NCBI GenBank assembly: GCA_037576195.1
Contig: CM075103.1
Coordinates: 37,647,250-37,711,249 of the forward strand
Length of the DNA stretch: 64,000 nt
Source: Phytoseiulus persimilis
Lineage: Eukaryota > Arthropoda > Arachnida > Mesostigmata > Phytoseiidae
Reading direction: 5' to 3'
The notes under the pieces were generated by a model. It was given only the letters and a program-made list of their open reading frames with translations. It had not been told where the DNA came from and did no database searches. Both the position numbers and the translations under genes were made by a program. Positions 3,650 to 48,225 of this stretch are shown piece by piece; the stretch's first letter is position 1, and each line of letters begins with the position of its first letter.

Positions 3650-3657
3650 GATTAAAC

Positions 3658-3835: not shown

Positions 3836-3843
3836 TATTAAAC

Positions 3844-9612: not shown

Positions 9613-9662
9613 ATGCATACGAATCGCTGACTGACCCATGCATACGAATCGCTGACTGACCC
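9613..9662. repeat. 25-bp tandem duplication (two copies)
   Basis: The unit, beginning ATGCATACGAATCGC and ending TGACTGACCC, occurs twice without a gap and the two copies are identical. The first five bases of a third copy follow. It is a recent local duplication with no visible function. Confidence 0.9.
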
Positions 9663-11803
9663 ATGCAGTATTTGAGAGCCTAGTTCGCCCCTGCCGAGAG
9701 AGTGCAGCTCTAGCACCGCGGCGTCGCTCCTAAGTTGATTCAGGCAATCATCGTCTCCGAGCTTTTCGGGCGTGTGCCGGAGTCAGGGCACTCAGGTGTT
9801 ATGGCCGACTTTCAGAGCCGCTCTGCCGCACTCAGGACCACGCGGGGATATCGCGCAGTGCGGAACAGTGAGTGGAACACAAAGCTGCGTTCCTCTCATG
9901 TACGATTCGTTTCGGCGAGTAAAGGCACACTTGTGGTCTAACGTTCTTGTCTGTATCTCACCCCCCTGTTTCCGTTTCCACGCTCCACGCGCGCCACTCA
10001 TCCAAGACCAGCATGAATCGGATTCCGCGAAGCTTATCCGTGAGGGGCTTTATCCTTGCGTCACACAAACAAAAGGAATTCAGAGCAAATATTGACTCAG
10101 GCGAGTGAGCCATACGCCTGCGCCGCCTCGATTCTCCAGTCGTTTCTGCTTCCCGGAAACCTTACTGGGCTGAGTTGAAGATCGAAACGCCCTGCGGAAG
10201 GTCCTCGTGTGCTCCTCAAGGCGAATCCGAATCATCCTCGCGTTCCCTGGCCTGTGGTCCGTCCTCTCCGCACCTTGCTCTTCGCTCTCCTGGCTATCCG
10301 ATACAGTGCTCTTTTTCTCCTGCTGATGGTGGCATTGTGGTCAGCGAGTTTAGATCTCTCGGTCCTTTCCGGAGTATCTCCCGCCATTGATCGTCCCAGC
10401 GGGGAGCAGCAACGTCTGGAGCCCGGAGTGAATCCGCGCGTGTTGGCGGGTGCTTCGACAGCATCAGGAAATTGCTTTCCTCGAAATCCGGGTTTCATGG
10501 ATGCCGTGTTCGCTCATGATGTCGACATGTCCGCAACGTCAAGGGAACCATACTTGCATCATTCCCACATCCCGTTCAGAGACTTCTGGTCAGTACCGTT
10601 CTCCTTCATTGTGATTTTTCGTTCCGCAAAATACAAGCCATCTCTCACATGATGTTTCGACAGAGGCTCCGCGCCCTAGATGCGATGACAGTGATGAATA
10701 TCTCGACGATCGTTCTAGAGAGCAGTCCCACTGCCCAAAGCCAGTGTGATTTCTGGAGGGAGATAGAAAATGAGTCCCCGGCCATCCGCAAATCTCAGCC
10801 CCCCCCCCCTCCCTTTGACGAGGAAGCTGCGTGATATTCGATCCTGGTCCTGAGTTCGAGACGTCAGAAAATGCTCGAAGAGGCCGATGGAGAAAACGAC
10901 GATGAGCGCAACATTACATTCCAGCTCCGGACACCCGGGCCCGGACGTCTTGGCCCCGACACACTCCGGCTGGAAGTTATTCCGGTCTCGAGAGTTTTCG
11001 GCCCCGGACATGCTTACCCCAAAAGGCATCATTCGTGTATGATCCTGTGCCCCATTCTTTTGAACACATTGTTTATCTCTCATGGTGCCCGTGATTCCCT
11101 GTGAGCGCAGGCGGAAAAAAAGCGAAGTCAGACGCGTTCATGTGTGCGCGATTCGCTAACACCTGAGAATAGTAGACTGGAGGAAACCGCCGCGATCAGG
11201 GATGATCAGTACGGGTTCTTATGGGATGAAACATGCACTGTTGAGCCACAAAAGTGGAGAATCATAGAATTCTCCGCTTCGGGGAGGCGCGTAGAGATGA
11301 TTTGATGGCCGAGATGCGCGGAATTTTCCTGCGACAGAGAAAATTCCACGAGTGGTGAAAATAAGAATTATTGAAAAGCGTCCAAACTGAGATTCTGACA
11401 CCCTTTTCCGCTTCCGCAACGTAAATTTAGGGCACACAGAGGTCGTATGAAAAAATGAAAACTCGCCTGCGCGTAAGTTGAGCTATCGCGCGATCGGAAT
11501 CGACACCGTGGCCCTCTTTTATTGTGAGATACTCATTTCAAATCAGACCCACCAACAGCTCCGGATCAAAGAACCCCATGCAGACCCCGGCACCGAACAG
11601 TGGCGACTGTGCAACCGAAGTCGAACCCTGAGGTGCAGGTATCGACTCGCCTGTGTCGAGTATCGAATGGAGGAGGGGATGTAGAAAGTTTGGGCTGGAG
11701 ACTTCGCTCCAATTACGCACTGGCTCCCCAGACATGGACCTCATATCCTCTAGATGGACTTCTGCTGCCTCAAACATTTTGGGAGTCACTACTCTGGTCG
11801 TTT

Positions 11804-11848
11804 GTGCCTGCGAAAAAAAAAAAAACATCTTATTGCTCGTGCCTGCGA
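11804..11848. repeat. A13 tract between two 10-bp direct repeats
   Basis: GTGCCTGCGA occurs at 11804-11813 and again at 11839-11848, enclosing a run of A and a short tail. The layout mimics the target duplication around a retroposed poly-A sequence. With only 25 bases inside, a slippage-type duplication is equally likely. Confidence 0.6.
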
Positions 11849-13619
11849 ACCGTCCGAGCTCGCGTGCCGAAATTTGGCCCACCAAGCTCAAACATACCTT
11901 GATTGCAGAGTCCTGGCGTGATACTCAATCATCACGCATGCGTGTCCGAGGATTATTTCACGACTGGAATCGCGAACAATTCGGCAGCCGAACGAGCATG
12001 AAACGATCCGAAGTGCGCGCTTCCGATCCGCCTCGCGGATCTGGAGCGTCAATGGGAACGTGATGTTTTTGGTCGAGAACGTAGCTCTCCGCTGGTTTTA
12101 TTTATATTCCTCTGGAAACGAGTCTGCTCCAATCTTTGTTTATGGAAGCTCACTTCGGGGACGTTGACGGACATCATTTTGCAACGCGGGCAGAGACAAC
12201 TGAGCGGGTGTTCGATAGCGGGTATCGGGTTGGATAGTGGGCTCTTCTTCTACCCCGTTTTCGAGCCTGTTCATCCAGTCGTTCGCGAGCCATGACAAGA
12301 AGCTACTTGATCTTCGATGGCACGCCAGGGTCTCGTATTACAATGTCGTGTAATGGTGCTTCTCGAAGGAACGGTGGACACTTCCGTGCGCGTTGGCTCT
12401 CTCACCAAACACCCGGCGAGCCATCCACATAATGGAACACCGGCTACGTCGATATTGTCCTTAATCGACTCGCAGACGCCATGTTTCATTTTCCGCAACG
12501 TGACACGACATCGACGACGAGATTGGAACGGAAGGAATTGGACGGATCAGCAGCAAGGGCCGCGCAAACGACTCTCGCCATTCACGAACGAAGAACGGAG
12601 CGTTCCGAAAGCGTGTTGCTCTATCAGGCACCTACTCGAGTTGCCTTGTGAGCAGTTATCGCTCACTCACAGGACTGAGTCCCAGGTCCTGAAAGTTGAG
12701 CACATAGACCGGTTCGGCTCGGAAGCACGTGGCGCTCGATCGGCGAATTCTGGATTTGAGGGTGATGATGACTCGATTTCCTCTCGTACATAGACTTCAA
12801 TACATGCTGGTTCCCTCTGCTCCGTCGGAGAACTTTGGAACTGTGATCGACGATTAGCTGGGCTGAGAACCTCGCCTGTTGGGACTGTGTGACAAGTAAC
12901 AAGAAGATGGTGGAAGCAGCCTTCGTCATGGAGCTTGCCGGAGTGATGCATATGAATTGAACTATTCAGTCGCTCGATACTCACGCCTGCCGTCGAGAAA
13001 TGCCAGAAAGAAATGGAAGAAGATGGAGAACAAAACCTTGGAACTCGGCAGGATCTTCCCATAATTTAGTTTTCCCTACGCACCGGCAAAGTTGGGCATC
13101 ATTATGATTGATGATTACCGGTATGATGAAGCGATTATTTTTCGGGAGTCGCTGAACGCAATGCGGTCATTTTCGAGAGTTTATTTCCCCATCTCGATGA
13201 AAGTTCCCAACGAGCCGTCCATCAGAAATTAACACAATCAGCCGCGAGGATTGAGCGAGCGAGTGAAAGCACCGCGACGTTGTGGGTCCGTGCTAAACGC
13301 AGCGCAAAACGGATTGAGACTGTAGGTAGGTCTCGGGTACTGTAGGTCGGAAACTACCGTACACCAGTCGGGCAGGCGGAATTTGCCACAAACTGGAAAT
13401 ATTGTGTTTATGAACTTCTTTCTCGAATTTTCCTCGCCAAGTATATTCGACAATGAAGAACCCTTCATGGGACGGCACGAAACCAAAGGCGGAGCTATCA
13501 CGAGTCTCTTCGATTGGTCCAGCTGGAGTTTCGGAAGCATTCGCAGGAAGTATTCTGTGATCACCTCGAATTCCATGCCACGATGAATGGTTTGGCCAGG
13601 TGCCCCTGTACACAACGAA

Positions 13620-13860
13620 TGGACGTGATCATATTCGATTGTGAATAATGCTCGTAACCATTATTGTGATTGTCAGAGCTTGGGAGTTCAGGCATTATCA
13701 ATTGATCATCATCCATCAAACTCTGGATTCATGTATTGATGAATACATGGTTCGATGAATTATGCATTATTACTATTAGCACTGATAAAATCAACCATCA
13801 GAGAATCATTAATCCATGGATAAATGGGAGGTATAGAATGATGAATACTTGAGATTCCAA
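13620..13860. repeat. AT-rich low-complexity island
   Basis: About 240 bases are clearly richer in A+T than the surroundings and built from variants of ATTGATG, GATGAAT and ATCATTA. A small hairpin lies inside, with arms CATGTATT (13730-13737) and AATACATG (13742-13749). It is probably a decayed simple repeat. A role as a regulatory or matrix-attachment sequence cannot be judged from sequence. Confidence 0.6.
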
Positions 13861-13997
13861 GCTCCGGAAGTCGAGTAGTCAGTCAGGGATCCATCGAACC
13901 GATTTCCGATAACGTTATCCTGCATTTTTTTTCCCAAAAACCCCTCACTCCTTGTTACCCTCCAGTTTTTGCGTTGCCAAGGAAAGCGCGAAGTAAT

Positions 13998-14093
13998 GTT
14001 GTCGGAACTCGCTTCAATGAATTTCTGACTGGCATCTTGACTTTTAGAAATTCGGAGTTGCGACGTTTTGCATCTGGGCTCTACAATTGTTCT
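13998..14093 (+). repeat. dispersed repeat, copy 1 (see 48132-48225)
   Basis: This stretch matches 48132-48225 over about 95 bases at roughly three-quarters identity; the best block is GCATCTGGGCTCT. Translated in one frame, copy 1 contains VVGTRFNEFL and ELRRFASGLYN. Copy 2, allowing one single-base gap, gives VIGNRFEEFL and ELRRFASGLFN. The conservation looks better in protein than in DNA, which suggests a multicopy coding element or gene family I cannot name. Confidence 0.6.
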
Positions 14094-17000
14094 ACTCCAC
14101 GAATGTCGTTCGGGATGCGATCAGACATTCGGATGGAACGTTTCGCCGCTCGGGGCCGAATGATTCCGAGCAGAGCCCATAATGTTGCCCCATGTGGTCT
14201 ATTCAGAGATTCCGATGTTTTCCGCTCTCAGGGAGGCCAAGAGGCAACTACCGTTACAACTAGGATGGAGCAAACAGTCTCGTTCACCGATGCTTTTGTA
14301 GTACTGGCTTCCATCCGGGCTCTCCCGACTCGCTAATCGGAATCCAGTCATGGGCAAGCAGTTGGGATAGCAAGTCTGATGTCAGTCTCAGAGAACAGGT
14401 CCTACGCCACGCATCTCCTATTGACGTTAGTCCTCCGCCAAAATAAGTGTCCGCGGTCATCGTCTCGTTCCCACTTTCGGAAGTTTGAATCGTTCCTTGT
14501 TCTCTTCATCGGTTCACACTCCGAGTCGAATCCTCAATATCGGAGCGGCTCGACCCGGCTGTTCTCTAAGCCTGGAACGATCGATGCCGCACAGGTCGTT
14601 GGAACAAATTTAAGGCTTTCCCCACTGTTTCTTCTTCCCAGAGCGGGAAGGAGCGCCGGTCAGGAAGATTTGGGAAACATTCAGCGGGCAGACCGAAGCT
14701 GTTGGTGGTGGTCACTTCCTGAGCAGCTGTTCCGCCGTATGTGTGGTGGGCCCGACCGACCGATCGACCAACCATCTGTCCGCCAGTCGTGGTGTGTATG
14801 TATATTTGGAGCCGAGATAGAGCGAGGCGCAGTCGCAGACGGCCAGCCGAGTGTGCAGCTGCTTGTGCTGCTGGCTGGAGGCGTTATCCGGCATTTGGCG
14901 TCCATCTTATATTTTTTTGTTTTCAGAACTCGAGCCCGAGGCCATAATTTCGTGTAGAGCGTGACAGTCACATACAGTCGGTAGCTGGTTCTGGAAGGAC
15001 GGCTCTCTTTTGTGCAGTCTCGGGCGCATTCAGATTGCTTCGACCGCCGAAATAAAGTACTCGCATGCGTTTGCGGACCACCGAGCGGCCTGCAAGCAAC
15101 AACGGCCCTGCGCGAGCTGCACTTGACGTGCACGATGAATTCGGCCGACCGGCGCCGTTTATTTGTGCTGATCGGTTGACAACGCTTCTGGCCGAGCTTA
15201 TCGGACTCGCTAAAGACTCCACGGGAAGCGGCGAAGTTAGCGTTGGAGAATCGCCGGAGACGCGTGCTGGCGGAACATTCTGAGACACACAGAATACTCC
15301 CAGAGCATCGAACCCACATGAAAGTGCGATGTGCGATTCCGGAACGATTGACCGCTTCCGGGTTCACAGCGCTTTTGCTGAATACATCCTCGGCGAATCC
15401 TCGGGGGAACACTTCGTCGAATCCGACGGAAATCCGAGAAACCTGCTCAATGGGGCCTCGCCGGGACAAGGCCGCTCCGGACAGTCTGATCCTCCGGACC
15501 TCAGCTAAAAAAACAGCTTCAGGCTCAGCAGCGGAAGGACTTTCGGGACCATGCGCTCGAGTCCTCATGTGCGGATGACAGGATCGTGCGGGGCTCCAAT
15601 AACAGGACTCCACCGAACCAGGTTTGCCCGTCATCTAGCGATCGTGGAAACGAGGGGCGTGAATGGAGGGCGGACTTTGGGGGATCGCGACGCGACGAGC
15701 CAAGGAGTCGGAGGGCAAGGACGGTTCACCCGCCCGTTCTTGCCTACTCTGCTTGCTAAATTGTGCGTGAGTTCAAAACTCCCGTGACGCGATTTTTGGG
15801 GGAAAGATACAGAGGCAGCGGGATAGGACGCGCGCGGGGGTTGAGTCTTTCACATGGTTGGTTCGTCGCTGAAGCGTTCTGAAGGGGCACGAACATATTC
15901 CCAATAATCGTGGTCATAGGCGACGCGGCAGCGGGCAGAAGACATCGTCGCTCGTGACATCATCGGTGACGGCATGACATCTTTGCCTCTCCCTCGTTCC
16001 TGGCTGTGCCCCCACTATCGTGCTCGTCGTTGGTCGCCCGTTGGTCTCGAGTTGTTTGCTCTTCGTACCTCAAAACGGCTTGGAACTATGTTTTCAAGTC
16101 GCTGACGTGGTCACCATCGTCATCGTCCGATGGCAGCTTAGGAATGGAGAGGGCTGCAAAAATGGATAGCCTCCAAAATGAGTTGAGATCGAGCTTGTCC
16201 GATCGCTCAGGACCGGAGCGCTGGATCAGATAAAGAGCCTGTGAAGGACAAACGATGATGGAATGCATCAATAGAACAGTTCCCTCAGAGTTTCAGGTAC
16301 TCATTGAGACAACAAAGCTGTGGGTTTGCGAAAAACGCCAATATTCTAGCCAAAAAGTATGTGGGTTTTCGATGGATTCGAGCGGGAGGCCTTGCGCAGA
16401 ACATCGAGCTTTTTTGTCAGTCCATCGGTTCGAGATTGACTTTCTCCACTGAGCGGCCTGACCAGACTAGCCAGCTGCCGTTGTCGTCGTTCCCATCGTT
16501 GTCGCCGATAATGTCCTCGGAGCAAAACTGGAGTAATTCCATTAGGTTCATAATCCCCGAAGTTTACTCTATTGCTCCTATAAGAATCTGCCCTAATCCA
16601 GGATTAAGTGCACGGCCCGAATACCCGGGATTTAGACCACCCGGTCCGGAATCCCTGCTGACTGGTGGCGAGCAAACCTGAACGACCACCCACCGGCTTG
16701 CCCTTGCTCGGGATTCCCCCTGGAATAATTCAGGCAGACACGGCTCAAGTTGTCGCGTGCGTAACGGTCAAGGTTACCCTCAGGCTTGGGATGGGACACG
16801 TAAGACTCGTCATGAGAGTTCAGCTCGGTCATAAAAAAAAATTCAGGCGAGTCATCGATGATGGTTCACGCCACAGATGGTCTCCCCCAGCCTCACAGAT
16901 GAATCTAACAGGTTGCCAAGTCGGAGGAAGAAATTCGTTTCGTTCAACTCTTCTGGAAGCTTGAATGGCAGCACCGTGAATCCTTCGGTACGTTTCGGAA

Positions 17001-18378
17001 TTCGTGGAGCAGCCACATGCTCGAGATGAGTTCATAGACTACGCCACCTGCAGTTGAGACACCGATGAAGCGATAGGTCGATTTAGGTAGGTTGTGCGCC
17101 TCGTCATATGATGTGTGTGTGACCTGATGTCAGCGCCAGCTGAAAAATGCGCAACGGTGTCCACTCGCCCGGGCTGCGCCCAGTGCTTCGCCGAGCTCGC
17201 TCGCTCGTCCTTGGAACACAGCCGCTCCACATACCCAAACTATGCCGCACGCTATTCATGAAGACTACCGGAAATGTTATGTTCCCACAGCGATCTAAAG
17301 AACGAAAACACCCGGAAACAGTTCGGATGTCTCTTGATAAGAGCCTCCGTTTGGTTCTGGCAAAGTTTCCCTGAGCTCGTGGATGTTCGTTACTTTCTGG
17401 TGTATGTTGCTCGCGGTTCTGCGCTGCAGGTGCTCTCTCAAGTCTGTTTCGTCCGTCGCTGAGCCGCGAGATGGTCAACTGGGCCAACGGTTCCACACAG
17501 TTGTTCAACAGCAAAGTCAACAATAAAGAAGGTTCCTCTCCTCAGCGTGGGAACATTTGAGATTGTTCTGATACGGTTGCGAGAAACCAGCGGCAGCTCT
17601 TCCGGCGGTGCATCTTTCACGTTCGTCTCTTCCGGTACATCACGTATATCTTTGTCAAGCCTGGGGGAAGGGGGAGTCCAGGGGGATGATTCCACGTCGA
17701 AATCAGCGTCCAGCGAGATTGTCCAAAGCTCACTGTGATTCAAAGCCGATCCAAGCCGGAAGTTTCGTTGCATGAAGCTACATTCGACGGCACGCCAGTC
17801 TCCAAGTTGAGGAAGATCGATCAACTATGATGCACGAAGAGCTTCCACTACCTGCCCCTCAGAAGTCGATTTCCCGTGTTTTCTTCGAGTGTAGAATGCG
17901 ATCGGTCCCTCTCTCATCGACCTGGCTTATCTCTGCTCATACCGATTCATTGCTGAGTTGTTGCCAAATCGTGAACTCCGTGGATTTGTCACTCCAGGAA
18001 TTCCGCGTCCGAGTGATTCAGCGTCACCGGATGACTTCCTAAGTGAGTCTCATGGAAGACATCGAAAGTACACTGAGCAATAGATGTAATACAGAGCGCT
18101 CAACGACCTTGATAGAACAACGCGCAGCCGGTCAACGGTCGTTCTCGTTTAAAAATATCACCGCTCCGCGTTCTCGTCATCGCCGTCGTCATCAATGTTG
18201 TGTCATCGGTCCCCGTGGAAAGCGTGGAATCAATGAGAGTCTTGCCCGCGTAATTGGGCGATGATGGAAGGCATTGAAGAATTGGAACCCTCTCTCTGAC
18301 GTCGTTGAGGAAAAAGGCGAGTTTTCCCGGCTCCCCCGAGTTGGAGTTGTCATTCGGCTCAGCGTTCCGTGCACAGCG
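14094..18378. other. no gene recognised upstream of receptor A
   Basis: Contains the longest open frame of the window (317 codons, minus, 14681-15634). It is rich in Arg and Ser, has no domain I recognise and sits in a locally G+C-rich stretch that favours chance frames. The promoter and 5' leader of receptor gene A should lie in the last part of this region, but I find no convincing TATA box or initiator to place them. Confidence 0.35.
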
Positions 18379-20463
18379 ATGTTCGTTCCCTTGTGCGTGG
18401 TGTTCCTGGTCAGCCAAGTCGATGCCGGCAACTGGAACGACACCTGGTTCCGGTACACGAAGAGCAAGCCGCATGGATTGACCGTGGTTTCAGTGAACAT
18501 GCACGTCCAGTCAATCAACAGGGTCGATAGCCATGAGGGCTTCATCCAGATGGCGCTCATCTTCCGCCAGGAGTGGAAAGACCATCGCTTGACGCACACA
18601 GCCCAAAGGCACTACGTCCCACAGTATCAAACCGTGGATCGCCACGAAATCTGGGTCCCGGACACCTTCTTCCTGAACGAGATGGACGCGTACTCACACT
18701 CGCTACTCGAGGTAACTCTCCGCTTCTCTCACTCTTCTCCGGCTTCGAGACTCCGTCCCCCTTGGAGCGTTCCCATCGCTTCGAACTCAGGAAGGGGAGG
18801 AATGTTCGTCGTGCGTTCTCCTTAGAGATCCGGATCTGAGAAGAATTCGTGTCGTTCCAGGACAACAGCATGGTCCGCGTTTTTCCTTCCGGCGACATTC
18901 TCCTCAGCAGGAAAATAACGCTGACGTTGAGGTGTCCCATGGACCTGTCGAACTTTCCTTTCGACACCCAGGTCTGCTCTCTCTACGTGGCCAGCTACGG
19001 TCACACTCGAAATTTGATCGACTACCATTGGAACACCAGTCAACCGATACAGCTGACACGCGAAACGCCGATACCAGAGTTCGAGCTCCGCCAATACGAC
19101 ACAGATCAATGCCATAAACGAACGTCTACAGGGGAGTATTCGTGCATCCAGGTGGACTTCACCCTAAGGCGGAACTGGCGCTATCATCTTGTTCAGGTAC
19201 GGTATCATTGCGGATGGATACATCCTCAAGGGGAGGTGGGGGGGCGAAGCGAGCTTTGCTTCAAAGATGACTCGGCCGTCAATTGATCCGGAGTTCCGAT
19301 TGGGAATGCCTTCCCGATCAAATCGTTCGTGGGGTCCGAGAGATTTCCTTTGAGAAAGGGAGAGTCCATGAACGGTGGTTCCTGCGAGATTCCGGGATGA
19401 ATCCCTGGGAAGGAGCGACCTGAACTTTGCGGATGTTCTGGGTGAATCCAGAAGCATGCGTGAATTCAGGGAAGCAGTGCGACAAGCGCTTGAGAAACCG
19501 CGAAGTACGAGTGGTTCCGTAATAGGCGTCAATTGGGCTCTGATACGCAGACTTGACCGCCCGTTGCTCGGACCATAAACGCTCGTGAATGATAGAGTCA
19601 ATAACTTCCAACGACCACTTAGTTCATGGTCTTTTCTCCATTCCGAGGCGGCTCCTTTACGTTCCGAGTCGAGTGATCTAAACGCGCGACCGCTTGCACG
19701 AACGCCACATTGATGTGTGCTGCCATGGTCTCGAGCGAGTGGTCCGTTCGGAGCGTTGGGCTCGATCTCTGGCTCTGAGGCTCCAAGGATGGTCTCCGAC
19801 GAGACGTTCGTCCGCAGACGCCATAGTTCAATGGATGTATTCCGGCTTGAGGAGACAGTCTTGTCCCGAGTTTGACGAGTGCTCCGTGGAGTACGTATCT
19901 TCGTCTCCGTAGGTGGCGTAAAATGTGGTCGAGCCTCACGATTACCGATGATTCCCAGGTATTCATACCGATGACGATGCTGGTCATACTCGCTTGGTTC
20001 ACGTTCTGGATCCGTCAAACGAGCGTGCGCATCACCATCCTGATGTTTGCGCTCTCTTTGGCCGTCATCGGAGCCGCATCATTGAACACCTCATTGCCGC
20101 ACACGAACTATGTAAAGATGATCGATATATTCACCGGTGTCGGGTAAGTTAAGTCGCGAGTGGAGCTTCTCTCGTCCATTCGAGATTTTTACGAACTCAT
20201 TCGAATGAGAAGATCATCTGAAGGAGTCATTCGATGATTCTCTTTCTACAAAGAGAATTAATGTCTTGATCGAGTTTGTTCTTCGCAGGATCACCTTCAT
20301 CTTCTCTGCCATCATAGAGTTCGTCGTCATCCTGAGACGCCTGCCCGATGATCTAGAAAAAGACGACACCGAAGATAAGATCGACCAAACCGCTCGTGTC
20401 GTGTACCCCGCATGTTACGCGGGTTTCATCCTTCTGTACTCTCTGAGTGCGCTGCTACGTTAG
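18379..20463 (+). CDS. receptor gene A: compact GluCl-like Cys-loop ligand-gated ion channel (4 exons)
   Basis: Exons 18379-18711, 18861-19196, 19959-20143 and 20289-20463, with GT-AG introns of phase 0, 0 and 2, encode 342 residues and end in TAG. The start is the Met opening a clean signal peptide, MFVPLCVVFLVSQVDA; the frame is open upstream to 18274. The ectodomain has WVPDTFF, the Cys-loop CPMDLSNFPFDTQVC (136-150) and the second, GluCl/glycine-receptor-type disulfide CHKRTSTGEYSC (195-206). M1 is 224-241, M2 about 247-266, M3 about 286-299 and M4 322-341. The M3-M4 linker is only about 21 residues (301-321), where animal relatives usually have dozens to over a hundred. M2 (RITILMFALSLAVIGA) has Ser at 9' and Val-Arg where GluCls have Pro-Ala-Arg. 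Of the two glutamate-contacting arginines of nematode GluCl, the first aligns with Gln (HVQSIN) and the second is kept (FRQEW). An NDT glycosylation site follows the signal peptide. Family membership is firm; ligand and ion selectivity are unknown. Confidence 0.93.
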
Positions 20464-22341
20464 ACGGTGATCGAAACACTGAAGCCCAGAAGGAACAAGT
20501 TTCCTGGAGTATCCGAGTTCCTGAATGCACTCTGAACTTACGAAGAACCCGGTCAGCACCGCCGCGAATGAGGAATGCAGTCAAACTTGCGACCGTTCAG
20601 TCAACCTCCGTTCACTTTTGAGATTTGGGCTCTATTTATTCCTGAAATAGGCGTTAGCCGAGTGCTAGCTCGAATCGCTCGTGGAAACTAGATATCCAAA
20701 CTAATAATTTCAGAGAAACACTATGGTAATAAACCTCGATCGCTGCATTTTCAAAGTGCTGTCTTGTGTTGAGGGACCGCTAAGACCGCTCAAGTTGTCA
20801 GGACAGGATGAGGATATCCAGCCTTTTCCGTAACATATCACGAATGAGGTGTTCCGAACGATGTCACAAGAACCTTTGCTGTCGGGAGCCACTCACTCCT
20901 CTTGATGCCGAAAGTGAGCAATTGAGCTCAATTCTCGCGTTCGCATCTGTAGGGATATCTGAGGAATTCTAGGTTCGTGAAGGAATCGAGTCCCTAGAGA
21001 ACTGTAGATAAGGAAAGAATATCCGACCGTTCCCCGATCCGTGAGGAGGCTACAGAAAAATCTCCCGCAATTTCCTTAAGAGCGATGGCAACCTTCGCAT
21101 AACTCTCTCAAACAGTGCAGGGAGGAATCGGTTCCATCTAGGGATCTTCTGTCACGTCTGAAGAAGACGAAGAGAAGGACAGGGAAGCAATTGCACGCGA
21201 TGTTGGTCGCATCTCGCATCCCTCTTCCCGTTCCGCTGACTCAAGACGCAACTTCGCTCTGTCGTTGATCAACATTACCAAATGCCAGCCTCGTTAACGC
21301 GCATGTGAATTCACGTTCATCGTGACTAACGACCCCGTCAGCGAGGCACTCGAATCACTCGCAACTCTACTGACAATATGTCCAATCGCTCCTTGGTGCT
21401 TCGCGGGCAGCCAGGGTTCAGATGCAGGGGTTTGACCTGCGCTAACATTTCGAGGGAAATTTTCGGAAGCTCAGATAAGAGGATCCGAACATTGGCCAGA
21501 GATCAATTCCAACCCTCGACTTCCATAAAATCCTGAAAGAAAGTTCGACGACTTCGAACGTCACTCTCGAGCTTCGTGAGTCGGAAGCGTCGAACGGAAA
21601 ACCCTCAGTTATTCTTCAAGAATCGTGGCTCATCATGAAACCGAGGGCTATCGATGCACCTCTCACCGTTCCCTATTCGAGACAAGCCGATTTCCCCCCC
21701 TCGCCAAAGGGAAAGAGATAACTCTTCCTATGTCGCGTTCGGGTATCAGGATTCTGTGTTTTCTTTCTGCAAGCAGGAACACTACCGAATGCTCACCCAC
21801 CTCTCGTCGTGTTTTCAGTGAGCTTTGAATTCCGTGCGAAGCCGAAGGAGTCTCTATTCATCAACAGACAACAGGCGAACTTCAGTACCGTGATGAATCC
21901 ACAGACAGTGAGTCCGGATCTCCGATCTGTCTTGTTCCCCATCCAACCCATTCCTTATCGAAACGGGAATTCGCAATCCAACGGAAGGATCACAAGCTTG
22001 GAGGCTCTGATGAACAATCGGAAGTATTTCTGAGTGTCACCATGCCACTAACGTACAATGGCGGTGGGTGTTTCAGAGAAGTGGATGTTCGGATGTCCCT
22101 GGAGTGGATACTTGAACCGGTTTCTCATTTCTTTCCCCTCGTATCTCAATAACGCCCGACAAGGCTTCCCAGATACTCGCCTTATCAGAGTACGAGCATT
22201 GGAAACCTCTGTTTTCGGCTGAACCTCTCAGCCAGCCCTCAGGAGTGTCCCGGATTCACCTTTCGGTATTGCTTCAGTAACACTCCCTATCGCCTCGCAA
22301 ATCCCATTGCGGGCGGTGGGCTTGGGTCTTAAGATGGTTCA
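20464..22341. other. 3' flank of receptor A and intergenic DNA, no gene seen
   Basis: Holds the likely 3' UTR of gene A and then about 1.6 kb without a recognisable feature. I looked for further Cys-loop exons (WxPDxFF, Cys-loop or M2-like stretches) and found none. Confidence 0.45.
20728..20733 (+). terminator. candidate poly(A) signal of receptor gene A
   Basis: AATAAA about 265 bases after the stop codon of gene A, the first canonical hexamer I see downstream. It gives a plausible 3' UTR length. Assignment is by position only. Confidence 0.45.
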
Positions 22342-22367
22342 GATTTAATTCTGATATGAATTAAATC
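22342..22367. repeat. perfect 10-bp inverted repeat next to the SINE
   Basis: GATTTAATTC and GAATTAAATC are separated by TGATAT, giving a perfect 10-bp hairpin. It lies about 30 bases from the B-box end of the tRNA-like element at 22396-22478 and may belong to that element's 3' body. Confidence 0.8.
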
Positions 22368-22395
22368 CTCTTTTTACCACATAAGAAATTTGTTG

Positions 22396-22478
22396 TCCCG
22401 GCCGAGGATCGAACCCGCGATTGCTAGCTTAGCGTGGCACCCAAGGCGTTGGTTTATGCCACACGGCCAACGAGCCGA
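22396..22478 (-). mobile_element. tRNA-derived SINE head
   Basis: On the minus strand there is a pol III A-box-like TGGCCGTGTGG (22459-22469) followed, at normal spacing, by a B-box GGGTTCGATCC (22407-22417). Between them is GCCTTGGGTGCC. The acceptor and T-stem pairings are imperfect (about 5 of 7 and 4 of 5), so this is not a working tRNA but the head of a tRNA-derived SINE or a tRNA pseudogene. The element at 61691-61772 has nearly the same inner sequence (GCCTTGGTGCC) before its B-box, which suggests one SINE family. The body downstream of the B-box would run into the hairpin at 22342-22367. Confidence 0.6.
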
Positions 22479-24317
22479 CGAGCATTGGAAACCATCTCTG
22501 AAGAAGTCGGCCTTTAGGACCAAATTCCAGACATTCAAGCGTGCGATCTCCGGTTCGAGAATGTGGTAGTACCACGTCGTGTGGAAAGTTCTCGATAGAG
22601 TTCCGAAAGGTATCATGGGCATGTCCGCCTATGCTAGCCACGAGCGGATTGGCGGGAATGAACTCATTCGCAATCAGAGTCGCAATTCGAAGGTGCAGGC
22701 CGAGGAGCAGGAGTTGGATCACCTGACATGCTCACAGTTTGAGAATCCAGTCGCACACATCGCGCTCTCTGAGCGGCATTCCGGACGAGCTCGTTCGGTG
22801 GGAAAGATGGAGAATTCTTGAAATAAGCCGTCACGTCGTTCTGCCCAGATCGGCAAGGTTCAACTCACTCAACTTTAGAGTGGGAGAGGCCGATTGATGT
22901 GGTTTGCAGCATAACGTTCTCATCATTCTTTCGAACGGTGCATTCTGCGATGGGACTCTGAAGGGATAACGAGGGGTTACAAACTCGGTTCCGCCACGAT
23001 CGCGACTGTCTGATTGTCAACCGTCTCGATTAAGACCCCTGATGTGGGTACACCGCTCTCCGGATTCACCCGAGTTTGGTCGAATTCGGAAGTCCGATAG
23101 TTCATGGACTCATTCCCATCAACTGAAAAGGCCCATCCGAACTCATTCAAACAGCTCCGGCTGTCCCCACTGTCGTTGCGAACGGAGACCGTGAGTGAGC
23201 TCTCAGCCGGAGTCCGGGGAGGACCTCTTGTCGGTACCGCTGCCACTCCCATTCCGTTGACTGATTTATCAATGCTGAACTTTTTCTCCTTTCCGAGAAT
23301 CATGGGTGGTCGAAGACCGTGAATCGGAGTTCGAACATTTCCGTCTCACAGATCACGGATCGGATATTAGGCTCTGCTTTGGTTCCGATTACTCTGGCAT
23401 TCGAAGTTTCAACACTCACCCGAACGGCTTCGGAATCTAAAGCGACGACTGAGTCCCATGATGTTTTTCCTATCTCAGTGGAATGAGTCTTGCCCGAAAA
23501 CTCAAAAGTTTTCGACTCACGTGGATCAGCAGGAGATCCATGAAGCTGGGAACAATATCCGTAACATCACACAAGCCGGCGGAGCCATGGCCCGACGATT
23601 CCAAACACGGACTGAGGAGCTTCTGATTCCGATGGTACCTCGAAGGAATCCAAACCGGGCCCGCAAGGGTTGCTCGCCAAACGATACCAGGAATCATTTC
23701 CATCGGGGCTGGTGAACTCCGGAATTCGACGACAACGAGGTCGCCACAACGGATTTTATTCAACGATCGGAGGAATCCATTTTTCTCCTCCGATCTTCCA
23801 CCTCTCGCGGCTCATTACTTCAGACAGGAATAATTGCCTTATGTCAATGATCAGGCCGACCGTGGACTCCTGTCATTTTTCGAATGAGATTTCTGGTCTT
23901 AATGCCGCAAACTCCGAAGCTCCCACGTGTGTTCTCTGGATTACGCCCGGAGTCCCTCCTCGAGCTTCAAGGACGGATGTGGCTCATCGAAGGTGGATTA
24001 AGGTCGGGCCGGGAAATGGAACAGTATGTGTGTGGGGAACGAAGACGCTTACGGTCAAAAGCTGCCGTTGGGCAGCGGGAGAATAGAAGGAGCAGATACG
24101 GTTAGGTCCTCGAAAGCCCCCGAGCGGTGTATCAACGGTTTGAAGAGCGTTATCCTGAGCAAATATTTGGCCTCTGTGAATGATTCGACCCCGGGCTGAG
24201 TGTTGGGAATGAATATTCCCGTAATATGTGGACACTCTCGCCCGTCTGCGCGTCGCGGTTCACTTCTCGAGATTGGAAATTCGTCGCCAAGGATTCATTT
24301 TGAGCTGTTTCAAAATT

Positions 24318-24353
24318 TTCCCCCGACCTTCGGGAACCCGAAGGTCGGGGGAA
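24318..24353. repeat. 36-nt perfect palindrome (17-bp arms, AA loop)
   Basis: The left arm TTCCCCCGACCTTCGGG and the right arm CCCGAAGGTCGGGGGAA are exact reverse complements separated only by AA. Such a long perfect arm pair is very unlikely by chance in 64 kb. If transcribed it would form a very stable hairpin. It sits between the two receptor genes, with no terminal repeats or element around it that I can identify. Confidence 0.95.
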
Positions 24354-26345
24354 CTCCGATCTCAACGACGAGAGTTCTGTGCGTGGTTTCATCATTAGTT
24401 GAACGGTGTGTTGTGAAGCCGATCAGGGAAGGAACTTCGGCAGGAAAGAGGAATGCCCTGCAGAGACGCGTTTTAGGGGGACCGTTTTGGTCTTACCACG
24501 TGGACAAAAAATCACGAAGAGAAGCAACCGATAGGAGTCCAGATAGCTGTACCGACGAGTTGGTCTTTGTGGTGATGACGAACCTCAAAAATGAGAGATT
24601 TCGTTGTGGCAGGCAGGCCACAGCCGGGGTGAAAAAGTTCCTCGCAGCGCTGAGCGCGAGTCAAAACCGGGAATGTCGTGGAAACGCGAAAGCTCACGGC
24701 AGTAGATGGAAGTCGGCGAAGCAGCGAGTTCTCGGGAGTGATTGCGCCTGACGAGAAGTTTGGTGGCGGGAACAAAGAAGAGGGATTTATCCTGCGGTGA
24801 ACAAGTCATCATCGGTACATCATCAGAAGTTCACGACCAAGCTGTAATCTACGGTAAGCCTTCACGCACACCTCAGCAGTCTCATCAGGGTGGGACCGGC
24901 ATGCGCCTTCCTCGCGCCCTCCAAATTACTGCACGTCCTTCGGCCGCATCGGCAGGGACTACAACGACAGGGCGGCGGGCGTCTGACGAAGCGGCAGCAA
25001 CTGAGGTTGCCGGAGCAAGGGTCCCCGCTCCCCGCTAATACCACATGCTCCCCGCTCGGAGACCTCGTTAAGTTTGCCCACTCGCGCTCTCGCCCAAGCG
25101 ACGGATGTTCGCCCTCGAATAGCCAACCTTGCACGCTCGGCGTTTGTGTCGGTCGCCTCTCCCTTCGCGAGCTCGCTCGTCTCCACCACCCGACTTGTTA
25201 CCTCTAATGCATCGTGCTGCCTGTCGTGCACTGTTGAGCTCGTTTAACATGTGAGGCCGTTCACTTGAATCTCAAGACCGAGCTCCCCCGATTCCTTCAC
25301 TCGGAATAATTCGATTCTGGGAGCGACATCGCAGTTCGGATCGCGCACGAGAATGTCCGACTGGACCGCGGGTCGATATCATCGAAACCAATGGAAGATC
25401 AGTCTCCACCAATAAACAGACAGTAGAGTCCGAGTTCCTCGAGCCCCGCTCATTGATTTCGACATCGACCCCGCTGAATCGATGTGAACGTTTATGAAGG
25501 ATGTTTTTTTCAATGAATTCCACTCATCAAACCTCCAACAAGAATCATTGACGTCGGGGAACTGTGGCAGTCTCAAGTTTCCAGAAGCTCACGGAGGTGG
25601 AGCGTGTAAGCGTCGTTCGACGAGTCGACGGTTCTGCTCTCCGCTGGGTCGTCCGGCAACATTTGACTTCTATAACAGCGCACTCCCCACGATTTATGTT
25701 GATCTCCTCAATGCACCCGAATGTTGGTACCAGGATCTTGAACTGAGAGCTCTACGCGTTTCCGCTTGTGGCGGTTCCCCTTGCCCGTGATCAGAACTCT
25801 GCAGGGTGCATGAAAAACGTCCCGAGAAGGAAACGCAATGCCCTCGCGGCTAGAAGTGAGGAGGACTGTGAAGCGTACTCCGACTTCGATCAACGTCCCA
25901 TCATTGTGAAGTGGTTCGAGGGACGAGCGTAACTGACGCAGCCACAGGACGCAGTGGCGCGTCGCTCGGAGTAGCTGAAAGGTCGAGCCATCTCGACTGT
26001 GTATCTTCAAGGAATCAACTCGTGCTGCCACAGTCTCAAGCGAGGAATCGCGAACTCAACGACGATCTCTAACTGACGACGTTCCCGCTCTCCCGGAGAA
26101 ATGCTTTCCTCGATTTCGCGAAATGCAGCTTCCCTGATTCGGAAAGCTGCTGCCCCACGACTTGCAACTCCCTGTCTCCTATACAATATGCTTAGGCGTT
26201 GGCGATCTCAAGAGGGAATGGACATTTAACGGGTCCGAATCTTCTCAGGGTCAACGCCTCTGGTACTGAAGACTTTCGGCGTCTGACTGCTACGCCGAGA
26301 GGTAGAAAACACTCTTTCGAAGGGTTGGATGACCAGGGGTCGCGA

Positions 26346-26403
26346 AACCGGGTCCCGGACCCGGTTCCGGAACTTCAGGGATCCAGGGACTTTCTAGTCC
26401 CTG
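26346..26403. repeat. cluster of short palindromes
   Basis: AACCGGGTC (26346-26354) pairs with GACCCGGTT (26358-26366). GTTCCGGAAC follows at 26363-26372. CAGGGACT (26384-26391) then pairs with AGTCCCTG (26396-26403). Three self-complementary units in under 60 bases lie about 310 bases beyond the stop codon of receptor gene B, so they could be in its 3' UTR. Confidence 0.8.
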
Positions 26404-26710
26404 AAACGACTCCTCTGCAGGTGCGAGATGATGAAGAGGGTGTAGCGGAGGACTGAGCGGAGCACATCGGAGTATGACTATTGGGGAGGTCAGAAAAAGG
26501 ACGACGATGAACATTGAGATCGAAGAGATTCGATTCGGAGTTGAAAGGGGACACTCGGCCTCGTGGCTCCACGGAGCCAGACGTGAGGAATGAGGACGAT
26601 TTCGGAGGTTTCGTCTACTGGATTCTTGTTGACACTGAAGCTACACGGAAGACATTCTATGAACATTTTCAATCCCTCATCGGGAAGGTATGAGCTTGAA
26701 TGCTCCTACT

Positions 26711-28528
26711 TCAAGAAAGATCGTTCGAGAGGCAGGTGATGATGATCAACATGTAAGCGATGGGATACCAAACGCTCGCAATGACGTCCCGAGCACTGAG
26801 GGTGTCGTTTTTGTCGAACGTCCTCCGACGACTCCAGTCGATGGAGAATTTGACCACGATGCCGAAAATGAAGATCAGGCTGCAGGGAAGAGAAAAACAT
26901 TAAGATGCGGAAGATCAGCTCTCGACCAAGCTCGACATTTGGCCTCAGAAGCCCAGGCTCGACATTGTAGCTCTACCTGATGATGAGGAAGCTGTCGATC
27001 ACTTTGAAATACGAAGTACGCGGCAGGACAAAGCTTAAGCTGCAATATCCCACGAGGGCTGCGGCGAAGACCACTGAAAGTAGTATGGCCCTGGCCGCCG
27101 CGTCCTGAATCCAGGCCGTCATGTATGCGAGAACCGCGAGCATCAAAACGGGCATGAACACCTGCGAATGACGTGCGACATGTGGAATCGATTCCGTTAC
27201 TTCTTGAACTTCGTCTCCGTAATTCCGACCGAGAGTTCGAAACAAATACTTCCACGCAGCGAATGACCAAATCGAACGAACGATCGACTAAATGCCAATA
27301 AATAAAGGGAAAGACTGAAATTCTGGGGAACGCGGAGTATTACCTGGAGAACGTAGGGAGACCACTGCCTGTTGAACGTGAAGTAGGCCACAAGACAGGA
27401 GTATTCGCCCGTGTTTGTTTTGGAAGTGCAGTAATCGGTCCTGAACTCGGTCAATGTAAAATCGCGCAAGCTCAAAGAATTCGTGATCTGGAGCGGGCTG
27501 GATTTTTTCCAAAGGTATACGATCTGGTCGACAGTGTGACTGTAGCTAGCGATCTTTATAGTGCACTCCTGGGTGTCGAACGGGAACCGTTGCAGATTCA
27601 TCGGACATGAGAGCTTGAGTTCGAGTCGGCGGCTCATGAGGATCTCGCCGTTCGGGGACACCCTGGCAAGGCTATTATCCTGGAATTGGAAGGTGCGGTT
27701 ACCTGGTTGTCCATGTTCCATTCTGATCTGTTCGTCCCTGATTAAAATCAAAAGATCGCGAGATCAGTCGCCACTTTGACCCTGAAGTCAGGCGTACTAG
27801 GGACTACTTTTTGACTGAAAACATGAGTGGAACTTTTGTTTGTGTTCACGCATGTGAATCCCGACGATTTTGCACGATGTAGCAGCGTTCCGTCTGTTGG
27901 AGCAAAAGGACAGATCTTGGAAATTCATCGAGTACTGTGAATTCTGGTTATATTCATGGTTGGGGAACTAGTCCCTCATACACCGGACAGGGGTCGTAGA
28001 ACTGTGTGTCATGACACCCAAAGGTGCTGCGGCTTCCAGCAATGTCGGGAAAGTCTGACGACGTCTGCGCCAGTCCTTACGGCGATTCCGGTATTTTCCC
28101 GTCATCGAACTCTCGGGTATTTGATTCTCAGCAAAGGGGACCTGTTCACGCGTACTCACGGACATGAGCTGGAAGTCGTGACCGCTGATTTCGTTGCTGA
28201 AAAATGAGTCGGGTGACCAGACCTGGGCCCTGTTGACAGTCTCGTACATCGAGTTCGGTTTGCTCGGATTCGGAGGGTCATACGCCAACTTCGGATCGTG
28301 CCACTGTTCACGGTAGGTGAGCTGCACGTCGTAGGTCATGTCGTCGATGTCGATGTTCCTGATGGATCTAACGAACATGTTCACGAAAACCATGGTAGCA
28401 TCCGCAGGCGGTTGTTTCTTGTAGTTCGACCACACAGTAGTCCAATTGGCGGCGAACGATTCCGCCACTACCAGCGATAAAATGAAAAAGGTCGCTTTAA
28501 TCGTGGCTACAGCGGTCGCGATGTCAAG
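26711..28528 (-). CDS. receptor gene B: compact GluCl-like Cys-loop ligand-gated ion channel (4+ exons, start not resolved)
   Basis: Minus-strand exons 28160-28528 (5' limit of the open frame), 27344-27679, 26977-27161 and 26711-26879, with GT-AG introns of phase 0, 0 and 2, ending in TGA. The N-terminus has a signal-peptide core (TFFILSLVVAESFAA) but no ATG between it and the upstream in-frame stop. A short 5' exon must supply the Met, or a rarer start is used. The ectodomain shows WSPDSFF, the Cys-loop CPMNLQRFPFDTQEC and CTSKTNTGEYSC, identical to nematode GluCl in loop C. Both glutamate-contacting arginines are present (FVRSI, YREQW), as is the loop-B Ser-Tyr. M1 starts VFMPVLMLAVLAYM. 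M2 is RAILLSVVFAAALVGYCS, preceded by Ala-Ala, with Ile at 2' and Ala at 9'. The M3-M4 linker is about 22 residues (RRRTFDKNDTLSARDVIA), and M3 keeps the Gly important for ivermectin in GluCls. An NWT sequon follows the signal. Family membership is firm and a glutamate ligand likely; conductance is unknown. Confidence 0.93.
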
Positions 28529-34876: not shown

Positions 34877-35304
34877 CCTTCACACTTCTCTCATCATCGG
34901 TGATATATGCCGTAAATGACGCAATGAGCTCGAAACCCGGACAGTGCTCGACGTTTCTCGAAAATCAGACATACTCGGACGTGTCCGGTACAATCTGACC
35001 TCTCCTTATTGGGAATCGTTGATTCCGGTCTTGATTCTGCTATATGTAGAATTTTCGCTCCGTTCGATTTTACTTTCTAAAATCGCAACAAAATCCAGAA
35101 TCGTCTCCGTTTTCGTATTGCCAGGCTTCCGTAATCAGAATGATTCGTTGATACATTGCTCCTCTCTCTGGTGGTGAAATCAATAGAATTCAAGGAAATT
35201 TCGAGCGGAGAAACATCGGCTGAGCCGATTATATTTCTAGCTGACCTCCGGCCGTCTGCGGAGACCGGCTTGGGAAGCACTCGGTTGGGACCTTGGTCAG
35301 GCAT

Positions 35305-35395
35305 TTCGCCCTGAGGTTTTGCCTAAGGCTCGCCCTGAGGTTTTGCCTAAGGCTCGCCCTGAGGTTTTGCCTAAGGCTCGCCCTGAGGTTTCGCC
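35305..35395. repeat. 24-bp minisatellite, about 3.8 copies
   Basis: The unit CCCTGAGGTTTTGCCTAAGG preceded by CTCG repeats almost without change. Because 24 is a multiple of three, the frames across it stay open and read as peptide repeats (PKARPEVL in one frame, LRASLRQN on the other strand). These are by-products of the tandem repeat, not evidence of a gene. Confidence 0.95.
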
Positions 35396-35639
35396 AAAAT
35401 ATCAGATCGACCGACCTCACAAGCTCATCCAGTTCCCAGAAAAACAGATATTTTACTCCCTATCATATAGGTTTAACACGGAGGTGGGGAACAGGGAGAT
35501 CATCCGCGACTCCAAATCGCAGGCTCTTCCGTACGTCTCGGAGCTCGGACTCACGTGTGTCCTCCATCTCCGCTTTCTCTTTGCGGATTCCGAACCGATT
35601 CTTCGGTGTCCGGCTGTGAAACAACAGCGAAGCAACAAG

Positions 35640-48131: not shown

Positions 48132-48225
48132 GTTATCGGGAATCGATTCGAAGAATTCCTGGCTGACCCTCGATTTTCAGAAATTTGGAGTTAAGACGTT
48201 TCGCATCTGGGCTCTTCAATTCTCC
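48132..48225 (+). repeat. dispersed repeat, copy 2 (see 13998-14093)
   Basis: Partner of the repeat at 14.0 kb. The conserved block starts just after CTCGATTTTCAG, a good splice-acceptor sequence (in copy 1, TTGACTTTTAG), so part of the match could be an exon. In the frame entered from that acceptor it reads VKTFRIWALQFSPESL. The other frame gives ELRRFASGLFN, conserved in copy 1. Which frame is real, if either, I cannot tell. Confidence 0.6.

What the first reader, a model, noticed from the sequence alone, without database searches (positions are those of the whole stretch)
18379..28528. Two animal Cys-loop receptors with bacterial-size M3-M4 linkers
Seen: genes A and B encode full ectodomains and four membrane segments, but only 21-22 residues join M3 to M4. 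Known: animal Cys-loop receptors usually have a long intracellular loop there, used for trafficking, scaffolding and conductance, while prokaryotic pentameric channels (GLIC, ELIC) have a minimal linker. Inference: this is a miniaturised GluCl branch that has lost its intracellular domain and with it the usual anchoring and regulation. Two paralogues share the feature, so it is inherited rather than a broken copy.
Basis: partly seen in the sequence, partly recalled or inferred. Interest (0 to 1): 0.8.

Follow-up and report, generated by a model that had tools for sequence, protein, structure and literature searches.

The report
Glutamate-receptor-like channels lacking intracellular domain
Two neighbouring animal genes encode glutamate-receptor-like ion-channel subunits that lack almost all of the usual inside-the-cell part and whose channel-lining segment is also rewritten, an unusual but not unprecedented variation on a well-known receptor family.

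Summary
Genes A (+) and B (-) are four-exon Cys-loop receptor paralogues, 39% identical, with matching intron phases. M3 and M4 are joined by about 21 (A) and 20 (B) residues within one last exon. From M3 start to M4 end they span 56 and 55 residues, against 57 in the loop-deleted C. elegans GluCl chain 3rhw.

The extracellular domain is as GluCl-like as usual (38% and 46% identity; GlyR alpha-3 39%), but pore helix M2 is not (6/23 and 3/23 identical; GlyR 14/23). The PAR motif and Leu 9' are gone. Pfam's membrane model scores 27.6 bits on A and nothing on B, against 109 and 137 for GluCl and GlyR. B keeps the Arg that ecdysozoan GluCls need for glutamate; A has Gln.

Published spider GluCls already have non-PAR M2 segments and homology models without the intracellular domain, so I call this a new variant of a known kind. 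Expression, phylogeny and host could not be tested, and B's start codon was not found.

The parts
18379..18711 (+). gene A exon 1: signal peptide and first part of the ligand-binding domain; ATG at 18379
   Evidence: the frame is open for 38 codons upstream without another ATG
18861..19196 (+). gene A exon 2: rest of ligand-binding domain, Cys-loop CPMDLSNFPFDTQVC, loop C cysteine pair
   Evidence: Pfam PF02931
19959..20143 (+). gene A exon 3: M1, M2, M2-M3 loop, first part of M3
20028..20096 (+). gene A M2 (0'-22'): RITILMFALSLAVIGAASLNTSL; no PAR motif, Ser at 9'
20144..20288 (+). gene A intron 3 (145 nt, phase 2), inside M3 and not in the linker
20289..20463 (+). gene A exon 4: rest of M3, short linker, M4, stop
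20335..20397 (+). gene A M3-M4 linker, 21 residues RRLPDDLEKDDTEDKIDQTAR (8 acidic, 5 basic)
28160..28525 (-). gene B first known exon (5' boundary uncertain): signal-peptide-like segment and first part of ligand-binding domain; start codon not found
27344..27679 (-). gene B exon: rest of ligand-binding domain, Cys-loop CPMNLQRFPFDTQEC, loop C CTSKTNTGEYSC
26977..27161 (-). gene B exon: M1, M2, M2-M3 loop, first part of M3
27024..27092 (-). gene B M2 (0'-22', MAFFT register): RAILLSVVFAAALVGYCSLSFVL; no Pro at -2', Ala at 9'
   Evidence: phmmer splits the gap differently
26880..26976 (-). gene B intron (97 nt, phase 2), inside M3 and not in the linker
26711..26879 (-). gene B last exon: rest of M3, short linker, M4, stop
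26774..26833 (-). gene B M3-M4 linker, 20 residues SRRRTFDKNDTLSARDVIAS

Best explanation
A and B are two intact-looking, diverged subunits of a GluCl-derived Cys-loop receptor lineage that lost its intracellular domain, and remodelled its pore helix, before A and B duplicated. Most likely mechanism: the subunits assemble as pentamers with each other and/or with an ordinary GluCl subunit. Glutamate binds at interfaces where B (or an ordinary subunit) supplies the complementary face, because B keeps the loop G Arg and A does not; A can supply the principal face. Binding is coupled to the membrane part through the Cys-loop FPFD, the pre-M1 Arg and the M2-M3 loop, which are kept. With no intracellular domain there is no MA-helix portal cage and no scaffold-binding loop, so the channel would be unanchored, with conductance and desensitisation set only by the membrane part. 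Shown here: gene structure, linker length, domain conservation, residue identities. Inferred: expression, heteromeric assembly, ligand, conduction, trafficking.
For: Gene models and coding signature. A and B 39% identical (127/326) with the same exon phases. Best solved relative is C. elegans GluCl for both, aligned into M4. GlyR alpha-3 with its loop cut (5tin, 362 aa) aligns to A residue 335, while a long GlyR alpha-3 chain (9bu2, 478 aa) aligns only to A residue 299 in its best stretch; the pattern is not perfect, as the 367-residue GlyR alpha-1 chain 8dn2_D also stops at 299. Glutamate-contact positions of GluClcryst named in PMC4178172 (passages), R37, R56, S121, S150, Y151, T197, Y200: B keeps 7 of 7, A 6 of 7 (R37 is Q), GlyR alpha-3 4 of 7. 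Coupling elements FPFD, pre-M1 Arg, M1 Pro and M2-M3 'LPxxxYxKxID' are kept in both (alignment). Shared M2 changes against GluCl (G4' to L, M11' to A, Q14' to G, G17' to S, I18' to L, loss of -2' Pro) point to a remodelled ancestor. Receptors with engineered short loops can work: 5-HT3A with 2 to 7 alanines (PMC3335078, passages); GlyR alpha-1 keeping only its two basic stretches works and desensitises fast (PMC4891346, passages).
Against: No transcript evidence. B's start codon is not found, and no AATAAA or ATTAAA lies within 1.7 kb downstream of B, whereas A has one 265 bases after its stop. A lacks the loop G Arg, whose replacement (R76N) left AVR-14B without substantial glutamate gating (PMC4338433, passages). 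GlyR alpha-1 with the bare GLIC heptapeptide aggregated and did not function in one study (PMC4891346). B's pore-facing residues are almost all hydrophobic (I, V, A, V, C, S, F; mean hydropathy 2.74 against 0.69 in GluCl; A 0.87), so B may not conduct. Tyr153 of GluCl is His in both. No phylogeny with arthropod receptors could be made.
Confidence: 0.55

Rival explanations
1. A and B are glutamate-binding, non-conducting subunits (auxiliary or dominant-negative, or binding proteins tethered in the membrane, by analogy with soluble AChBPs): the ligand-binding part is conserved while the pore has decayed.
For: ECD identity to GluCl is 38% (A) and 46% (B), but TM identity is 36% and 22%, against 58% for GlyR alpha-3. 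Pfam membrane model: 27.6 bits in A, none in B; 109 and 137 in the two controls. B's pore face is hydrophobic.
Against: The gating-interface residues (FPFD, pre-M1 Arg, M2-M3 YxKxID) are kept, as would be expected of a channel that still gates. M2 still has 0' Arg in both by the MAFFT register. For A alone, ECD and TM identity to GluCl do not differ (p 0.69).
Confidence: 0.22
2. The channels conduct with altered selectivity (cations or mixed ions) because the anion signature is gone and, in A, the membrane-near stretch of the linker is acidic.
For: No Pro at -2'; residues -1' are V (A) and A (B); 13' is I (A) and V (B, MAFFT register), hydrophobic as in cation channels. A's linker has 8 acidic and 5 basic residues, while the loop-cut GlyR alpha-3 chain has 2 acidic and 6 basic in the same stretch. 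Spider GluCls with similar changes were suggested to vary in ion selectivity (PMC4569296, section 23).
Against: No acidic residue at -1'; Arg 0', described there as absolutely conserved in Cl- channels, is kept in both. B's linker is net basic (5 basic, 3 acidic).
Confidence: 0.13
3. The intracellular domain is encoded in a missed exon or alternative last exons, and the short form is an annotation artefact or minor isoform.
For: No RNA data; alternative exons occur in arachnid Cys-loop genes (RDL exon triplication, PMC9219234). My donor test is weak: 3 of 6 donors in my own models do not fit GTRAG, and B's linker holds five other GT dinucleotides.
Against: M3 end, linker and M4 lie in one uninterrupted open exon in both genes; A's linker holds a single GT, in its last codon. 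The M4 segments are similar to each other and to GluCl M4 (A/B 7/20, A/GluCl 6/20, B/GluCl 4/20 identical). tblastn with GluCl and GlyR chains finds nothing else below E 1 in the window; those chains lack native loops, and the search did not find B's own exons 3 and 4, so only canonical pieces would be seen that way.
Confidence: 0.05
4. One or both genes are pseudogenes or decaying copies.
For: B has no found start codon and no AATAAA/ATTAAA within 1.7 kb downstream. The pore helix is poorly conserved. Expression unknown.
Against: No stop or frameshift in eight coding exons although A and B are only 39% identical; GC3 0.72 in both; third-position excess of differences.
Confidence: 0.05

Closest known systems
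C. elegans GluCl alpha crystal construct (PDB 3rhw and kin)
   Same: Best solved match of both genes; same ECD, Cys-loop, loop C cysteine pair, four TM segments; almost the same M3-to-M4 span (57 against 56 and 55 residues).
   Different: Its short loop is man-made; its M2 is canonical (PAR, Leu 9', Thr 6'); it has Tyr153 where A and B have His.
Spider GluCl1-3 of Cupiennius salei and Stegodyphus mimosarum (PMC4569296; passages and sections 6, 15, 23, 25 read)
   Same: GluCl-class subunits in which -2'/-1' are not Pro/Ala, 6', 9' and 13' are atypical, 0' Arg is kept, and the C. salei homology models lack the intracellular domain; C. salei proteins are short (399-411 aa).
   Different: Longer than A (342) and B (351 aa of open frame). 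CsGluCl2 and 3 lack the second Cys pair that A and B have. Linker lengths are not given in the text read, so whether their loop is truly absent is unclear (a 450-aa subunit also modelled without it).
Divergent GluCl subclade of ticks and spiders (PMC9219234, sections 11 and 20 and passages read)
   Same: Duplicated GluCl relatives in arachnids (5 copies in I. ricinus, 3 in P. tepidariorum).
   Different: No statement on linker length in the passages read; membership of A and B untested.
Prokaryotic pLGICs (GLIC, ELIC)
   Same: No intracellular domain; A and B align along nearly the whole length of NCBIfam NF033918 (305 positions; 112 and 81 bits), though far below its cut-off of 500.
   Different: A and B have the Cys-loop and the loop C cysteine pair, and score much higher against animal GluCl/GlyR chains and NCBIfam TIGR00860 (257 and 223 bits, also below its cut-off); GLIC's linker is 5-7 residues (PMC3335078).
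Engineered loop-deleted 5-HT3A, GABA rho1 and GlyR (PMC3335078, PMC4891346; passages)
   Same: Functional channels whose large loop is replaced by a few residues (with exceptions reported for GlyR).
   Different: Artificial; normal pore.

Membership tests
Cys-loop receptor superfamily (animal) | Ligand-binding domain with 13-residue Cys-loop and FPxD tip | tested here: met
   PF02931 E 1.3e-39 and 1.3e-38; CPMDLSNFPFDTQVC and CPMNLQRFPFDTQEC
Cys-loop receptor superfamily (animal) | Four membrane segments with recognisable membrane-domain profile | tested here: inconclusive
   Four hydrophobic segments in both and M1-M4 align, but PF02932 scores 27.6 bits in A (cut-off 28.1) and nothing in B; controls 109 and 137
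Cys-loop receptor superfamily (animal) | Large M3-M4 intracellular loop (50-225 or more than 75 residues, PMC3335078) | tested here: not met
   21 and 20 residues
Glutamate-gated chloride channel (GluCl) | Closest to GluCl by sequence | tested here: met
   Best among PDB chains only: 214.6 bits against 198.3 for GlyR (A), 207.4 against 191.9 (B). None of the 60 rows shown for each gene (of 310 and 294) is named HisCl or pHCl, so those families were not compared
Glutamate-gated chloride channel (GluCl) | Second (loop C) disulphide pair | tested here: met
   CHKRTSTGEYSC (A), CTSKTNTGEYSC (B); cysteines present, bond inferred
Glutamate-gated chloride channel (GluCl) | Loop G arginine, absolutely conserved in ecdysozoan GluCls (PMC4338433) | tested here: inconclusive
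   B: Arg (met). A: Gln (not met)
Glutamate-gated chloride channel (GluCl) | PAR motif at -2' to 0' of M2 | tested here: not met
   SVR in A, AAR in B; both two residues shorter than GluCl between the M1 Trp and Pro 23'. Arg 0' kept in both by MAFFT
Glutamate-gated chloride channel (GluCl) | Monophyly with verified GluCls | not testable with these tools
   No genome held for the window; no relatives in the two collections scanned
Glutamate-gated chloride channel (GluCl) | Glutamate-gated chloride current | not testable with these tools
   needs expression
Prokaryotic pLGIC | No Cys-loop cysteines; M3-M4 loop under 15 residues | tested here: not met
   Both cysteines present; 20-21 residues

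The most novel reading that the evidence does not exclude
A natural animal receptor lineage that dispensed with the intracellular domain altogether and rebuilt its pore without the anion signature and without the leucine gate. It would be a glutamate-binding channel of changed selectivity, or a glutamate sensor that does not conduct, formed by at least two paralogous subunits that divide the two faces of the binding site between them (A principal, B complementary).
Probability: 0.25. Interest if true: 0.72.

Novelty: new variant of a known kind. Interest (0 to 1): 0.46.

Why it matters
The large intracellular loop of animal Cys-loop receptors is treated as a defining third domain, and its dispensability is known from engineered constructs. 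Natural paralogues without it would be a ready-made test of what the domain is for (anchoring, portals, desensitisation). The simultaneous loss of the PAR motif and Leu 9', with a largely intact glutamate pocket, would also test which pore residues selectivity and gating really need. GluCls are avermectin targets in invertebrates, so a divergent subunit also matters for pharmacology. Interest is tempered by published spider GluCls with a similar pore and by the lack of expression data.

Tried and rejected
Whole-genome search for more copies: no genome is held for this window. Relatives in viral contigs and bacterial/archaeal genomes: pattern hits (26 and 65 stretches) but none confirmed as a relative, so no phylogeny. 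Other Cys-loop pieces in the window: tblastn with A and B gave nothing else below E 0.5; with GluCl and GlyR chains nothing else below E 1, but that second search missed B's exons 3 and 4 and found A's exon 4 only at E 0.009, so strongly diverged pieces could escape it. Other genes in the window: 103 of the 617 stop-to-stop ORFs of at least 60 aa were scanned with Pfam; 0 of 103 matched at E up to 0.01. The 103 were 94 of the 110 best by a coding score plus 9 long ones; left out of the 110 were the 8 A/B exon ORFs and 8 others overlapping them. The score was trained on A and B, so their top rank is by construction. No tRNA and no Rfam family.

Missed linker exon in introns 20144-20288 or 26880-26976: rejected, because they lie in M3 and are 145 and 97 nt. 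Upstream start exon for gene B: one ATG-plus-donor candidate by a narrow rule (29460-29430), not convincing. Structure prediction was not run: the tool takes proteins that the DNA gives letter for letter, and these are spliced across introns; single exons would say little.

Paper searches for a natural animal Cys-loop receptor without the domain and for arachnid or non-PAR receptors turned up the spider paper as the only near precedent that I recognised. Most hits were seen as listings only, the library is the open part of PubMed Central, and one query was too narrow (1 irrelevant hit), so I do not claim that the short linker is unreported. A nematode GluCl database paper (PMC9210312, passages) said nothing on the loop between M3 and M4 in the passages shown. 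Alpo4 of Alvinella (PMC10338036, passages) was considered and is not like this: it has an intracellular domain (residues 308-412).

Against my reading: A lacks the loop G Arg; B lacks a found start codon and a nearby AATAAA/ATTAAA; the comparators for pore divergence are only two families (GluCl, GlyR). Within A alone ECD and TM identity to GluCl do not differ (38% and 36%, p 0.69); the contrast for A is with GlyR's TM identity of 58% (p 0.003). For B the within-gene contrast is clear (46% and 22%, p 0.0002). B's M2 register is uncertain: MAFFT puts both missing residues in the M1-M2 turn, phmmer splits them, which would move the part of B's M2 up to about 13' by one position and take Arg off 0'; 9' is Ala either way.
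Full report
WHAT IS THERE. The window carries two Cys-loop receptor genes about 6.2 kb apart, in opposite orientation with their 3' ends facing each other. Gene A (+) has exons 18379-18711, 18861-19196, 19959-20143 and 20289-20463 and encodes 342 residues. Gene B (-) has exons 28525-28160, 27679-27344, 27161-26977 and 26879-26711, with 351 residues of open frame and an uncertain N-terminus. All six introns are GT-AG, and the phases are 0, 0, 2 in both genes. A has an ATG directly before a signal-peptide-like segment. B has none: the frame is closed by a TAG just upstream, and a narrow search for an upstream ATG exon gave one unconvincing candidate. A and B are 127/326 (39%) identical.

BOTH LOOK CODING. 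GC3 is 0.72 in each, against 0.52 GC for the window. Differences between A and B fall 0.49, 0.39 and 0.62 on codon positions 1, 2 and 3 (chi-square p about 1e-8 from rounded counts). No stop or frameshift occurs in eight exons. A has an AATAAA/ATTAAA 265 bases after its stop; B has none within 1.7 kb. tblastn finds no third copy (nothing else below E 0.5), and 0 of 103 other ORFs scanned, of 617 in the window, matches Pfam at E up to 0.01. The window is otherwise gene-poor as far as this can tell.

THE LINKER. By my boundaries 21 residues (A, 20335-20397) and 20 residues (B, 26774-26833) separate M3 from M4. Measured from M3 start to M4 end, A has 56 residues, B 55, the GluCl chain 3rhw 57, and GlyR alpha-3 chain 5tin 57. 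X-ray constructs had the loop replaced by a short peptide (stated generally in PMC4891346, passages; the AGT replacement in 3rhw is recalled, though 'AGT' is visible in the aligned chain). So the natural genes are, to within two residues, the size of a laboratory ICD deletion. McKinnon et al. give 50-225 residues (introduction) and more than 75 (discussion) for eukaryotic subunits, fewer than 15 for prokaryotic ones, and 7 or 5 for GLIC (PMC3335078, passages); A and B lie between. These are introns that split M3, so a missed exon there would not fall in the linker. The rest of M3, the linker and M4 are in one exon in both genes. Neither last exon has a GTRAG donor, but 3 of the 6 donors in my own models do not fit GTRAG either, so cryptic splicing from within the exon is unlikely rather than excluded; A's linker holds one GT (last codon), B's five. 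M4 is recognisable in both, with an aromatic-Pro pair (YP) and neighbouring residues shared with GluCl and GlyR M4.

THE PORE IS ODDER THAN THE LINKER. In the extracellular domain, identity to GluCl is 69/180 (A) and 83/182 (B); GlyR alpha-3 has 71/181. In M2 it is 6/23 (A) and 3/23 (B), against 14/23 for GlyR alpha-3 (Fisher p 0.04 and 0.002). Over M1-M4 it is 31/87, 19/87 and 52/89 (p 0.003 for A and 8e-7 for B against GlyR). Within A alone the ECD-TM contrast is absent (38% and 36%); within B it is strong (46% and 22%). Pfam's membrane model gives 109 and 137 bits for GluCl and GlyR cut to the same extent, 27.6 for A (below its cut-off of 28.1) and no match for B, while the ligand-binding model scores 145 and 161 in those controls and 136 and 131 in A and B. 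Both genes are two residues shorter than GluCl between the M1 Trp and Pro 23'; MAFFT puts the gap in the M1-M2 turn in both, phmmer splits it in B. In the MAFFT register proline -2' is gone, Arg 0' is kept, Leu 9' is Ser (A) or Ala (B), Thr 6' is Phe or Val, and 13' is Ile or Val; B's 9' is Ala in either register. B's pore-facing residues are hydrophobic overall (mean hydropathy 2.74 against 0.69; A 0.87). A and B share L4', A11', G14', S17' and L18' where GluCl has G, M, Q, G and I, which suggests the remodelling began before they separated.

THE LIGAND SITE. PMC4178172 (passages) names R37, R56, S121, S150, Y151, T197 and Y200 as glutamate contacts in GluClcryst. B keeps 7 of 7, A 6 of 7, GlyR alpha-3 4 of 7. 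The missing one in A is R37, which I take to be the loop G Arg of PMC4338433 (passages). That paper calls it absolutely conserved in ecdysozoan GluCls and shows that its replacement by Asn leaves AVR-14B without substantial glutamate gating. The alternative loop A Arg of lophotrochozoan GluCls is absent too (no Arg in either loop A segment, alignment). Tyr153 is His in both. So B can in principle offer a full glutamate site; A can offer only the principal face. That is why I favour A+B or mixed heteromers. The coupling elements (FPFD, pre-M1 Arg, M1 Pro, M2-M3 YxKxID) are kept in both, which speaks for a channel that still gates.

WHAT LOSING THE LOOP WOULD DO. 5-HT3A receptors with 2-7 alanines in place of the loop are functional, with desensitisation depending on loop length (PMC3335078, passages). 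GlyR alpha-1 with the bare GLIC heptapeptide aggregated and was non-functional in one study, while constructs keeping the basic stretches RRKRR and KKIDK worked, the shortest with fast desensitisation (PMC4891346, passages). A's linker begins RR and has DKID near its end, a partial likeness to that last construct. These are predictions for A and B, not results.

WHAT IS ALREADY KNOWN. GluCls of the spiders C. salei and S. mimosarum (PMC4569296; passages and sections 6, 15, 23 and 25 read) have M2 segments without Pro/Ala at -2'/-1' and with atypical 6', 9' and 13'; the homology models of the three C. salei ones lack the intracellular domain, and they are 399-411 residues long. A 450-residue subunit was also modelled without the domain, so that statement may partly reflect the templates. 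Ticks and spiders have a divergent GluCl subclade (PMC9219234, section 11). A and B therefore look like extreme cases of a theme seen in arachnids, although I could not test their placement: the window's own genome is not held and I had no arthropod genomes to search. In the paper searches made here (mostly listings) I saw no natural animal receptor described with a linker of about 20 residues, but the library is partial and annotated protein databases were not searchable.

VERDICT. The added finding is that the ligand-binding half is conserved while the pore half has been rewritten.

Noticed in passing
window 22370-22480 (- strand): A tRNA-like stretch with a B-box-like ggttcgatcc followed by an A/T-rich tail, suggestive of a tRNA-derived SINE; ARAGORN and Rfam give nothing. 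The motif is recalled.
   Followed up: partly
window 13868-14088 and 48012-48221: Dispersed repeat with pieces in both orientations: 132 nt inverted (79%), 95 nt direct (79%), 29 nt inverted (100%); probably copies of one mobile element.
   Followed up: no
window 35282-35398: Tandem repeat of a 24-nt unit, a few copies, in an open frame.
   Followed up: no
window 24318-24353: 36-nt near-perfect palindrome between the two receptor genes.
   Followed up: no
window 1-17500 and 29000-64000: No other protein family recognised in the 103 ORFs scanned (103 of 617 in the window), no tRNA and no Rfam family: gene-poor surroundings although the two receptor genes have short introns.
   Followed up: partly
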